Below, in pieces: positions 25,619 through 29,740 of a DNA stretch of 58,738 nucleotides. Below the pieces are notes generated by a model. That model made no database searches. It saw only the letters and a list, made by a program, of their open reading frames with translations, and was not told the origin of the DNA. The stretch is from Actinomycetota bacterium (GTDB lineage: Bacteria > Actinomycetota > Acidimicrobiia > IMCC26256 > PALSA-555). Within the stretch, counting starts at the first letter, position 1, and each line of letters begins with the position of its first letter. Location of the stretch: NCBI GenBank assembly GCA_016870595.1, contig VGBI01000005.1, positions 1 to 58,738 of the forward strand, read 5' to 3'. The position numbers were made by a program, and so were the translations under genes.

Positions 25619-26979
25619 GCGAGGCCGCGCCCGATCTCGAGGCGGTCGTCGCGGCCATCGCCGATCGGGCCGCGCCGGGCGAGCAGGTGGAGGCGTACGC
25701 CAACCACTCGGTCGAGACCGACGTGAAGGTCCACGGGGGAGCGGTCGAGGAGCTCACGGTCGCCGAGAGCGGCGGGGTGGGCGTCCGTGTCGTCGTCGAC
25801 GGACGCCTTGGTTACGCCTGGGTCGGATCGCTCGCCCCCGACCTGGTCGCCGGGGTGCTCGACGAGGCCCGGGACAACGCGCGGTTCGCCGCACCCGACC
25901 CACACAACGACCTCCCGACCGCGGCCGACGCCGTCGGGGTCGACGTCGCGTCGCTCGACCTCTGGCGCGACGAGTGCATCACGGTCCCCACCACCGAGAA
26001 GGTCGCACTCGCACTCGCGCTCGAGCGGATCGCGGCGGGGCTCGACCCGCGGGTCCGGGGGGTGGAGTCGGTGCACTACGGCGACGCCGCCGCCCGGTCG
26101 GCGGTCGCGAGCTCGCTCGGGGTGCGGGCGTCGTCGCGCCGGACGGTGAGCTCGTGCAGCGTGAGTGCCCTGGCCGGGGAGGGCGACGGCACCCGGACCG
26201 GCTCCGGGTTCTCGGTGGGCCGCACCCTGGCCGACCTCGATCCCGACCGGGCCGCCCGCGACGCCGTGACCCGGGCGACCCGGCTGCTCGGGGCCGCTCC
26301 GGTGACGTCGCGTCGCGTCCCGGTCGTGTTCGACCCGCTCGTCACCCGGTCGCTGCTCGGGATCCTCGGGGCCGCGGTCAACGGCGAGGCGATGAACAAG
26401 GGTCGGTCCATGTTCCTCGGTCGGCTCGACCAGCCGGTGGCGGCCGCGTCCGTGACCCTGGTCGACGACCCGACCGACGCGCGCGCCTCGGGCGCGGCGC
26501 CCTACGACGCCGAGGGCATCCCCACGCGCCGCAACCCGCTGATCACCGACGGGGTCCTGTGCGGCGTGCTGCACAACACCGCGACCGCTCGGCGGGCCGG
26601 GGTCGCAACCACCGGCTCGGCGGTGCGGGCCGGCTACGCGTCGCCTCCTGGTGTCGGGGCCCGTGCGCTCGCGCTGGCCCCGGGGCCGCGGAGTCCCGAC
26701 GAGATCCTCCGCATCGCCGGCGACGCGTTCTTCGTGCAGTCGGTGAGCGGCCTGCACTCGGGCACCAACCCGGTCAGCGGCGACCTGTCGCTCGGGGCCG
26801 AGGGGCTCTTGATCCGCGACGGCGAGCTCGCCGACCCGGTCCGCGGGGTCACGATCGCCTCGACCGTCCCGCGCATGCTGCTCGACGTGGTGGCGGTCGG
26901 GTCGGACCTCACCTGGTTGCCGGGCGCCGCGGCCGGGCTCACGCTGCTCGTCGGGGAGATGGCGCTCAGCGGCGCGTGA
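25615..26979 (+). CDS. pmbA: TldE/PmbA-type protease partner subunit
   Basis: This 454-residue protein is the TldE/PmbA partner: it has the same fold as TldD but lacks the HExxxH metal site. Family stretches include AESGGVGVRVVVDGRLGYAW and GEAMNKGRSMFLGRLDQPV. The GTG at 25615 overlaps the stop of tldD. The 3' end overlaps the convergent SAF-domain gene by 14 bp. Together with TldD it should form the cytoplasmic protease chamber. Confidence 0.88.
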   Translation: MSEAAPDLEAVVAAIADRAAPGEQVEAYANHSVETDVKVHGGAVEELTVAESGGVGVRVVVDGRLGYAWVGSLAPDLVAGVLDEARDNARFAAPDPHNDLPTAADAVGVDVASLDLWRDECITVPTTEKVALALALERIAAGLDPRVRGVESVHYGDAAARSAVASSLGVRASSRRTVSSCSVSALAGEGDGTRTGSGFSVGRTLADLDPDRAARDAVTRATRLLGAAPVTSRRVPVVFDPLVTRSLLGILGAAVNGEAMNKGRSMFLGRLDQPVAAASVTLVDDPTDARASGAAPYDAEGIPTRRNPLITDGVLCGVLHNTATARRAGVATTGSAVRAGYASPPGVGARALALAPGPRSPDEILRIAGDAFFVQSVSGLHSGTNPVSGDLSLGAEGLLIRDGELADPVRGVTIASTVPRMLLDVVAVGSDLTWLPGAAAGLTLLVGEMALSGA

Positions 26980-27619
26980 GCGCGCCGGGGACCACCGCCT
27001 CCTCGGGCGGGACGACGGCGAGGAACAGCCGCCCCCGGGCCGCCGCCGTGGCCAGCGCCGCGGCGCCGGCCTCGTCGACGAGCAGCGTCACCGAGGCGCG
27101 ATCGGCGGCGATGACGATGGCGCCCGCGGTCGCGACCTGGGCCCGTCCGGGGACGCTCCCCGTCGGATCGACGCTGCGCTCGGGGGCGAGGTAGACGTCC
27201 ACCGGGGTTCCGGGTCGGGGCCGCAGGCCGCCGTCGACCTCGATCCGCACCGCCCGGGTCCCGGCGGGAAGCCCGGCGGCGAGGCCCCGGCGGCCGCGCG
27301 CCGCAAGGTGGCTGCGGTGCAGGTACCCGCCCGCGACGACCGGGACCCGCACGACCCGACCCCGCGCCCGGGCCGGTCCCCGCACCACCCCGGCGGGGAG
27401 CTGGGACGCATGGACCCGGCGGGTGGTGAGGTCGGCACCGGTCACCGTGGCGCCGAGCGGGAGGTCGGTCCGGGCGACCGCCACGGCGACCGGGGGGCCG
27501 AGCCGGGCCGCCCGCCGGCGCAGGGCCGTGAGGTCGTCGACCACGACGGCGGCGCTGGTGGCGGCCAGCAGGGCTGCAGCGGCCCACAGGCCCAGGACTC
27601 GGGGGGAGCGTCGGAGCAT
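26966..27619 (-). CDS. SAF-domain protein, CpaB/RcpC-like
   Basis: This 217-residue protein has one N-terminal membrane helix (about residues 9-26) and a SAF-type domain with ARTDLPLGATVTGADLTTRRV, the pattern seen in CpaB/RcpC, the Flp-pilus assembly protein, and in related actinobacterial proteins. A second, RcpC-like part follows with DVYLAPE. No other pilus gene is in the window, so a pilus role is inferred only from the family. The ATG at 27619 was chosen because the hydrophobic segment follows it. Its end overlaps pmbA tail-to-tail by 14 bp. Confidence 0.65.
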   Translation of the reverse strand: MLRRSPRVLGLWAAAALLAATSAAVVVDDLTALRRRAARLGPPVAVAVARTDLPLGATVTGADLTTRRVHASQLPAGVVRGPARARGRVVRVPVVAGGYLHRSHLAARGRRGLAAGLPAGTRAVRIEVDGGLRPRPGTPVDVYLAPERSVDPTGSVPGRAQVATAGAIVIAADRASVTLLVDEAGAAALATAAARGRLFLAVVPPEEAVVPGALTRR

Positions 27620-27704: not shown

Positions 27705-28064
27705 TCAGTCGGACGACGAGGAGCCCGAGGACGAGCCCGACGAGGAGCCCGACGACGAGGACCCCGACGAGGAGCCCGACGACGACCCCGACGACGAGGA
27801 CCCCGAATCCGACGACGATGACGAGGAGGAGCCCGACGCCGACGACGACGAGGAGGACGACGACGACCCCGACGACTTCTTCCCGGAGCGGTTGTCGGTC
27901 TTGTAGAAGCCCGAGCCCTTGAGCACGATCCCGGCCGGGCTGAGCACCTTCGAGAGCTTGCCCCCGCAGCCACCGGCGTGACGGGTCTTGGGCTTCTCGT
28001 CGAACGACTGCCAGATCTCGAGCTCGTCGCCGCACTTGGCACAGCGGTACCGGTAGGTGGGCAT
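27705..28064 (-). CDS. ruc: Ruc-like redox-regulated chaperone (FmdB-family zinc ribbon)
   Basis: This 119-residue protein has an FmdB-type N-terminal zinc ribbon (MPTYRYRCAKCG, Cys8 and Cys11) and a Ser/Gly-rich disordered tail from about residue 65 to 119. That layout matches mycobacterial Rv0991c (Ruc), a chaperone activated by oxidation of its zinc cysteines and working with DnaK. Only one cysteine (Cys33) remains in the second ligand pair; His29 may be the fourth ligand. A CIRCE element overlaps the predicted transcription start, as expected for a gene of the HrcA heat-shock regulon. GAGG precedes the ATG at 28064. galU and moeA follow on the other side, as in mycobacteria. Confidence 0.82.
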   Translation of the reverse strand: MPTYRYRCAKCGDELEIWQSFDEKPKTRHAGGCGGKLSKVLSPAGIVLKGSGFYKTDNRSGKKSSGSSSSSSSSSASGSSSSSSSDSGSSSSGSSSGSSSGSSSSGSSSGSSSGSSSSD

Positions 28065-28127
28065 GGGTCCTCGGATCCCCTGGGTGGTGGGCAGATGGCG
28101 GTCGGGTACCGGGCGGGAGGTCGCGTG

Positions 28128-28154
28128 CTGGCACTCCCACCGGGCGAGTGCCAA
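28128..28154. promoter_or_regulatory. CIRCE element (HrcA operator)
   Basis: CTGGCACTC-N9-GAGTGCCAA matches the CIRCE inverted repeat bound by the heat-shock repressor HrcA. It sits directly after a minus-strand -10 (28154-28159), so HrcA should repress the Ruc gene. It lies about 60-95 bp before plsY on the plus strand and could touch that promoter too. Confidence 0.9.
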
Positions 28155-28159
28155 CCCTA
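28154..28159 (-). promoter_or_regulatory. -10 hexamer of the Ruc gene
   Basis: TAGGGT on the minus strand would start transcription near 28147, inside CIRCE, giving a leader of about 83 nt to the ATG at 28064. Confidence 0.55.
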
Positions 28160-28224: not shown

Positions 28225-28839
28225 GTGACCTGGATCCTCGCCCTCGTCCCCGTGGCGTACCTGCTCGGGACCTTCCCCAGCGCCGGGCTCGTGGCCCGCC
28301 GGGCGGGCATCGACGTCACCCGGTCGGGCTCGGGCAACCCCGGGGCGTCGAACGTGGTGCGGCTCATGGGCTGGAAGGCCGGGGTGCTGGTCTTCGTCCT
28401 CGACGCAGCCAAGGGCGCGATCGCCGCCGGGGCCGGCCTCGCGATCGACGGCCACCGGGGGGCGTGGATCCTCGGGGTTGCCGCCGTGGTCGGCCACGTG
28501 TTCCCGGTGTGGCGGCGGTTCAAGGGCGGGCGCGGGGTGGCCACGGGCGGCGGGGTGTTCGTGGTCCTCTACCCGATCGTGACCCTGGTGCTCGCCGTGG
28601 TCTGGGTCGCCATCGCCCGGGGCCTGCACAAGGCCTCGGTCGCGTCGCTCACCGTCGCGGTGCTCGCGCCCGTGACGGTGATCGTGCTGGGTGGCAGCCT
28701 CCTCGACGTCCTCATCGTCACCGCCGTGGCCGTGCTCCTGATCGGCCGCCACCTCCCCAACCTGCGCCGTCTGGTCCGGGGCGAGGAGCACGGGCTCGCA
28801 CAGCCGACCGCGCCCGACGACGACGCCCCCGAGACCTGA
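28225..28839 (+). CDS. plsY: Glycerol-3-phosphate acyltransferase PlsY
   Basis: This 204-residue integral membrane enzyme transfers an acyl group from acyl phosphate to glycerol-3-phosphate, the first step of phospholipid synthesis. Conserved motifs are RSGSGNPGASNVVR, the loop GHVFPVWRRFKGGRGVAT and the C-terminal GRHLPNLRRL. The GTG start gives the normal short N-terminus MTWILALVPVAYLLGT. The last 20 residues are acidic and not part of the fold. It is divergent from the Ruc gene and upstream of galU. Confidence 0.93.
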   Translation: MTWILALVPVAYLLGTFPSAGLVARRAGIDVTRSGSGNPGASNVVRLMGWKAGVLVFVLDAAKGAIAAGAGLAIDGHRGAWILGVAAVVGHVFPVWRRFKGGRGVATGGGVFVVLYPIVTLVLAVVWVAIARGLHKASVASLTVAVLAPVTVIVLGGSLLDVLIVTAVAVLLIGRHLPNLRRLVRGEEHGLAQPTAPDDDAPET

Positions 28840-28858: not shown

Positions 28859-29740
28859 ATGGGTTCGGTCCGCAAGGCAGTGCTCCCCGCAGCGGGGCTC
28901 GGCACCCGGTTCCTCCCCATCACCAAGAGCATCCCCAAGGAGATGCTCCCCCTCGTCGACAAGCCGGCGATCCAGTACGTGGTGGAGGAGGCCGTGACCG
29001 CGGGCATCACCGACGTGCTCGTGATCACCGGCCGCGGCAAGGGGGCGATCGAGGACCACTTCGACCGCAACGTGGAGCTCGAGCAGGTGCTGGAACGATC
29101 GGGCAAGCACGCGCTGCTCGCCGAGGTCGCCGCCACCGACCAGCTCGCCGACGTGCACTTCGTCCGCCAGCACGAGGCCCTCGGCCTCGGCCACGCAGTC
29201 TCGGTGGCCGAGCCGCACGTGGGGGGCGAGCCCTTCGTGGTCATGCTCGGCGACGACATCATGGTCGACGACGCCGCGCTGCTCACCCGCATGCTCGCGG
29301 TGCACGAGGAGACCGGCGGGTCCGTGCTCGCGGTGCTCGAGGTGACCCGTGAGGAGATCAGCGCCTACGGCGCGCTCACCGCGGAACCGGTGCGCGAGGG
29401 CGTGGTGCGGGCCCGGGGCGTGGTCGAGAAGCCCGCACCCGACGATGCCCCGTCCACCCTGGCGGTGATCGGCCGCTACGTGTTCACCCCCGGCATCTTC
29501 GACGCGCTGCGCGAGACCTCGCCGGGCGTGGGCGGGGAGATCCAGCTCACCGATGCCATCGGGATCCTGCTCGAGCGCGAGCCCGTGTACGGCGTGATCT
29601 TCCGCGACGGTCGCTACGACGCGGGCAAGAAGGTCGACTTCCTCCGGGCCAACATCGAGCTCGGTCTCGCCCGCGACGACCTGCGCGACGAGATCGAGCA
29701 GATGCTGCGGGTGCTCGTCCGCGACCGCGGCCTCACGTAG
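28859..29740 (+). CDS. galU: UTP-glucose-1-phosphate uridylyltransferase
   Basis: This 293-residue enzyme makes UDP-glucose from UTP and glucose-1-phosphate, feeding cell-wall and polysaccharide synthesis. The nucleotide-binding motif GLGTRFLPITKSIPKEMLP is near residues 14-32. Other family stretches are QHEALGLGHAV and VMLGDD. The next gene, moeA, starts 10 nt after its stop, and in mycobacteria galU is likewise followed by moeA1. Confidence 0.95.
   Translation: MGSVRKAVLPAAGLGTRFLPITKSIPKEMLPLVDKPAIQYVVEEAVTAGITDVLVITGRGKGAIEDHFDRNVELEQVLERSGKHALLAEVAATDQLADVHFVRQHEALGLGHAVSVAEPHVGGEPFVVMLGDDIMVDDAALLTRMLAVHEETGGSVLAVLEVTREEISAYGALTAEPVREGVVRARGVVEKPAPDDAPSTLAVIGRYVFTPGIFDALRETSPGVGGEIQLTDAIGILLEREPVYGVIFRDGRYDAGKKVDFLRANIELGLARDDLRDEIEQMLRVLVRDRGLT

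What the first reader, a model, noticed from the sequence alone, without database searches (positions are those of the whole stretch)
27705..28159. CIRCE element controls a Ruc-type redox chaperone gene
The sequence shows CTGGCACTC-N9-GAGTGCCAA directly at the predicted start of transcription of an FmdB-type gene with a Ser-rich tail. In M. tuberculosis Ruc (Rv0991c) is a heat-shock co-regulated, oxidation-activated chaperone. The same regulation in a non-mycobacterial lineage, with galU and moeA also nearby, suggests an old and conserved HrcA-Ruc link.
Basis: partly seen in the sequence, partly recalled or inferred. Interest (0 to 1): 0.6.

Follow-up and report, generated by a model that had tools for sequence, protein, structure and literature searches.

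The report
HrcA-controlled Ruc-like chaperone gene in Acidimicrobiia
A stress gene for a small zinc-binding protein, probably a helper that stops damaged proteins clumping, carries the same on/off switch as the main heat-shock chaperone genes; this was known in the tuberculosis bacterium and is shown here to be widespread in actinobacteria, with a changed metal-binding site in this group.

Summary
A perfect CIRCE operator (28128-28154) lies 66 bp upstream of an FmdB-family gene (27705-28064, minus strand). In its genome, CIRCE cores without mismatch also precede groES, groEL (two) and hrcA. The hrcA gene is present but cut by a contig end, so a domain search misses it. The site is conserved: 27 of 33 fmdB genes in the same order (class Acidimicrobiia) carry it, against about 0 for permuted operators, and so do lineages across Actinomycetota including Streptomyces, Micromonospora, Amycolatopsis and Mycobacterium. 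It is rare in Chloroflexota (3 of 251). The HrcA-ruc link itself is not new: it was shown in M. tuberculosis (PMC7448276). Two things differ here. First, the promoter is a G-n-TANNNT -10 box whose last base is the first base of CIRCE, not the GGAAT-N18-GTT (SigH/SigR-type) promoter found overlapping CIRCE in mycobacteria and many Streptomyces. Second, the zinc site is Cys-Cys-His-Cys: the third of Ruc's four cysteines is histidine, in 31 of 34 proteins of this order and in none of 233 others. HrcA repression is therefore well supported by comparison; 'oxidation-activated' cannot be carried over without a test.

The parts
28128..28154 (-). CIRCE operator (inverted repeat, 9-bp spacer), presumed HrcA binding site
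   Evidence: Perfect core; conserved in 27 of 33 same-order fmdB upstream regions
28154..28159 (-). -10 box TAGGGT (TANNNT) sharing its last base with CIRCE
   Evidence: TANNNT at this register in 25 of 27 same-order CIRCE-fmdB promoters against 0.65 expected from random windows (max 4); column profile
28065..28127 (-). Rest of the 5' leader between operator and start codon
   Evidence: Inferred from the -10 position
27705..28064 (-). fmdB/ruc-like gene, 119 aa: zinc ribbon C8, C11, H29, C33, then a Ser/Gly-rich tail
   Evidence: TIGR02605 48.9 bits (cut-off 31.3); PF09723 39.9 bits (cut-off 34.4); sequence
28228..28839 (+). plsY (glycerol-3-phosphate acyltransferase), divergent neighbour
   Evidence: PF02660 144 bits; divergent to fmdB in 40 of 41 same-order loci
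28859..29740 (+). galU-type nucleotidyltransferase
   Evidence: PF00483
29751..30962 (+). moeA
   Evidence: PF03453, PF00994 and PF03454

Best explanation
In unstressed cells HrcA binds the CIRCE at 28128-28154, which overlaps the -10 box and start of transcription of the fmdB/ruc-like gene, and blocks RNA polymerase. On heat or other protein-damaging stress HrcA loses activity and the gene is switched on together with groES, groEL and hrcA, the other CIRCE genes of this genome. The product is a small zinc-ribbon protein with a disordered Ser/Gly tail that probably acts as a holding chaperone. Shown by sequence: operator, promoter register, co-regulated set, conservation, presence of hrcA. Inferred: HrcA binding, heat induction, chaperone activity. 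Its activation by oxidation is uncertain because one of the four switch cysteines is a histidine.
For: Perfect CIRCE at fmdB. The genome's CIRCE-like sites with a symmetric, mismatch-free GCACTC/GAGTGC core are at fmdB, groES, groEL (two) and hrcA, that is, chaperone genes and hrcA. The hrcA start is present on contig C82 (TIGR00331 E 9e-22 over 53 residues), identical in those residues to an intact same-genus HrcA; 38 of 40 same-order genomes have HrcA. CIRCE at fmdB in 27 of 33 same-order genes, 26 with at most one core mismatch against a permuted-operator mean of 0.03. It occurs in 12 families of the phylum sample, 41 of 145 genes against a null mean of 0.23, and in named Streptomyces, Micromonospora, Mycobacterium, Amycolatopsis, Arthrobacter, Conexibacter and Acidimicrobiia. 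CIRCE stays with fmdB where plsY is absent, so fmdB is the target. In M. [quoted passage not shown]
Against: No binding or expression data for this lineage. hrcA is truncated by the assembly, so an intact gene is inferred from relatives. Six of 33 same-order genes lack the site. The third zinc ligand is His, not Cys, so function cannot be read straight from Ruc.
Confidence: 0.88

Rival explanations
1. The operator serves plsY, or both divergent genes, rather than fmdB alone.
For: It lies between the two genes, about 74 bp from the plsY start; plsY is the divergent neighbour in 40 of 41 same-order loci.
Against: Outside Acidimicrobiia the site stays with fmdB although plsY is absent (only 3 of 119 named loci have plsY nearby), and the conserved -10 box reads toward fmdB.
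Confidence: 0.12
2. Chance inverted repeat.
For: With up to 3 mismatches, 22 of 100 shuffles of the window had at least one match.
Against: The match has no mismatches, and permuted operators are essentially never found upstream of fmdB.
Confidence: 0.01
3. The protein is not a chaperone: a Cys-Cys-His-Cys zinc ribbon with a disordered tail that acts as a stress-induced regulator or metal protein.
For: FmdB proteins were first annotated as putative regulators (own knowledge); the ligand change is specific to this order.
Against: Co-regulation with groES and groEL; same locus (galU and moeA neighbours) as mycobacterial ruc; conserved N-terminal domain and Ser-rich tail.
Confidence: 0.2

Closest known systems
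M. tuberculosis Ruc (Rv0991c) and its HrcA/SigH-controlled promoter (PMC7448276)
   Same: FmdB-type N-terminal zinc ribbon, disordered hydrophilic tail, CIRCE overlapping the promoter, co-regulation with groES and groEL; galU and moeA as divergent neighbours in Mycobacterium loci
   Different: C8, C11, H29, C33 instead of four cysteines (C8, C11, C29, C32); G-n-TANNNT -10 box instead of GGAAT-N18-GTT; CIRCE perfect here, while ruc sites of the likely mycobacterial genomes have one changed base in the left arm (CTAGCACTT)
HrcA/CIRCE regulon of groESL and hrcA-dnaJ operons
   Same: Operator sequence, 9-bp spacer, position over the promoter
   Different: Target here is fmdB/ruc-like, which is not part of the textbook regulon outside mycobacteria
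Hsp33 (redox-regulated chaperone, four-cysteine zinc centre)
   Same: Analogous idea of a zinc centre controlling a holding chaperone (comparison made in PMC7448276)
   Different: Not treated as the same family; homology not tested here

Membership tests
HrcA regulon (CIRCE) | TTAGCACTC-N9-GAGTGCTAA-type operator (A/G allowed at position 3) over the promoter | tested here: met
HrcA regulon (CIRCE) | HrcA encoded in the genome | tested here: met
   N-terminal 60 residues at a contig end; PF01628 itself not found because the contig ends there; intact in 38 of 40 order genomes
HrcA regulon (CIRCE) | HrcA binding and derepression by heat | not testable with these tools
   Needs binding assay and RNA measurement
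FmdB family (TIGR02605, CxxC_CxxC_SSSS) | Score over the curated cut-off | tested here: met
   48.9 bits against 31.3
Ruc (redox-regulated chaperone) | Four zinc-binding cysteines in two CxxC pairs | tested here: not met
   C8, C11, H29, C33; the second CxxC is missing in 31 of 34 same-order proteins
Ruc (redox-regulated chaperone) | Disordered hydrophilic C-terminal tail | tested here: met
   Tail after residue 60 is 44 Ser and 10 Gly of 59 residues, (composition only)
Ruc (redox-regulated chaperone) | Oxidation releases zinc and activates chaperone activity | not testable with these tools
   Needs purified protein
SigH/SigR-type promoter of ruc | GGAAT-N18-GTT overlapping CIRCE | tested here: not met
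   Absent in the window; the motif test found it in 1 of 27 in the order; present in Mycobacterium loci, and by reading the alignments in many Streptomyces loci

The most novel reading that the evidence does not exclude
In this order of Acidimicrobiia the Ruc-like protein has become a heat-induced (HrcA and housekeeping-type promoter) chaperone with a Cys3His zinc centre whose oxidation threshold differs from four-cysteine Ruc or is lost, so that thermal control has replaced redox control at both the gene and the protein.
Probability: 0.35. Interest if true: 0.55.

Novelty: new variant of a known kind. Interest (0 to 1): 0.4.

Why it matters
It indicates that Ruc belongs to the HrcA regulon well beyond mycobacteria, including non-pathogenic laboratory genera such as Streptomyces where the link can be tested easily, and it offers a natural Cys-to-His variant with which to ask which cysteines of Ruc form the redox switch.

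Tried and rejected
PF01628 in the own genome found no HrcA; explained by a contig break, not absence. The idea that fmdB operators carry a specially weakened left arm (GCAGTC, 11 of 27) was weighed: groES has it in 3 of 28 (Fisher p 0.014, related sequences not independent), and hrcA operators carry the mirror form in several genomes, so it is a lineage half-site variant more than an fmdB-specific device. An origin shared with Chloroflexota is not supported: 3 of 251 genomes with a strict pattern. No Rfam family in the leader. Downstream SAF-domain gene as operon partner: found only in the same genus among the loci held. Papers joining FmdB and CIRCE: none in the open library; HrcA regulon searches outside Mycobacterium gave nothing on Ruc in the titles and abstracts listed.

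Full report
What is there. The window holds CTGGCACTC-CCACCGGGC-GAGTGCCAA at 28128-28154, the only match in the window to the CIRCE arms even with three mismatches allowed, and it has none. On the minus strand its core ends 66 bp before the ATG of a 119-residue FmdB-family protein (28064 to 27705; TIGR02605 48.9 bits against a cut-off of 31.3; PF09723). On the other side plsY, galU and moeA run divergently.

The organism and its HrcA regulon. One same-order genome (G329) has a contig of the same length, and the same gene position, as a record titled Acidimicrobiia bacterium KatS3mg009 (L356), so the window is from the class Acidimicrobiia. A whole-genome scan found CIRCE sites with a mismatch-free GCACTC/GAGTGC core at five places: fmdB, groES (C50), groEL twice, 32 bp apart (C39), and hrcA (C82).

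Conservation. In the same order, 27 of 33 fmdB upstream regions carry the operator with at most two core mismatches and 26 with at most one; 119 permuted operators gave on average 0.03. In a phylum sample ranked by similarity to the window protein, 41 of 145 carry it with at most one mismatch (null mean 0.23, maximum 3), in 12 families. The sample favours proteins like this one, so the fraction is indicative. Whole families have none (for example f24, 0 of 12; f38, 0 of 9; f61, 0 of 9). In Chloroflexota a strict pattern finds 3 of 251 genomes, two of them already known from the first scan. By my reading of the tables, the phylum-sample genomes with the site all have HrcA except the window genome (contig break) and one fragmented genome, G287; since 265 of 297 have HrcA anyway, this is consistent rather than strong.

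Which gene. plsY is the divergent neighbour in 40 of 41 same-order loci but in only 3 of 119 named loci, while the operator stays with fmdB. galU lies 0.7-0.9 kb away, divergent, in many Mycobacterium and Pseudonocardiales loci too, with moeA behind it, so this is most likely the same ancestral locus as mycobacterial ruc.

Promoter. Aligned on CIRCE, the same-order promoters conserve only G at -7, T at -5, A at -4 and the first T of CIRCE upstream of the operator, that is G-n-TANNNT whose last T is the first base of the operator; 25 of 27 have TANNNT in this register against 0.65 in random windows. No -35 element emerged within 45 bp. In Mycobacterium the register test finds GGGAAT-N18-GTT overlapping CIRCE, in keeping with the published overlap of SigH and HrcA sites in M. 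tuberculosis; in many Streptomyces loci GGAAT-N18-GTT can be read in the printed alignments although the stricter GGGAAT test missed most of them. So repression by HrcA is shared, but the activating sigma factor appears to differ.

Protein. M. tuberculosis Ruc has four cysteines that bind zinc; oxidation releases zinc and activates the chaperone, and C8S,C11S or C29S,C32S variants are active without oxidation (PMC7448276). The window protein has C8, C11, H29 and C33. Of 267 distinct FmdB proteins read here, 31 lack the second CxxC and have a histidine at its first position; all 31 are in this order, 3 order members keep CxxC, and none of the 233 others lacks it. A Cys3His site can hold zinc, but the second disulfide cannot form, so redox activation must be tested, not assumed. 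The Ser/Gly tail is a family trait.

Verdict. The regulatory claim is well supported and extends a known link; the redox claim is open. I rate it a new variant of a known kind, of moderate interest.

Noticed in passing
G000:C39:8065-8119: Two CIRCE sites 32 bp apart upstream of groEL, about three helical turns.
   Followed up: partly
L207-L234, upstream of hrcA in the same order: hrcA operators share a spacer of the form CGGTA..AT that could hold a -10 box, so CIRCE would straddle the promoter there.
   Followed up: no
Same-order fmdB, groES and hrcA operators (loci L016-L028, L181-L265): A recurrent one-arm variant GCAGTC (or its mirror GACTGC): 11 of 27 at fmdB, 3 of 28 at groES, several at hrcA.
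   Followed up: partly
G000:C17:31467-31724 and most same-order genomes: A second, divergent Cpn10 (GroES-like) match besides groES.
   Followed up: no
window 26966-27619: SAF-domain (CpaB/RcpC-like) gene downstream of fmdB on the same strand, found only in the same genus among the loci held.
   Followed up: partly
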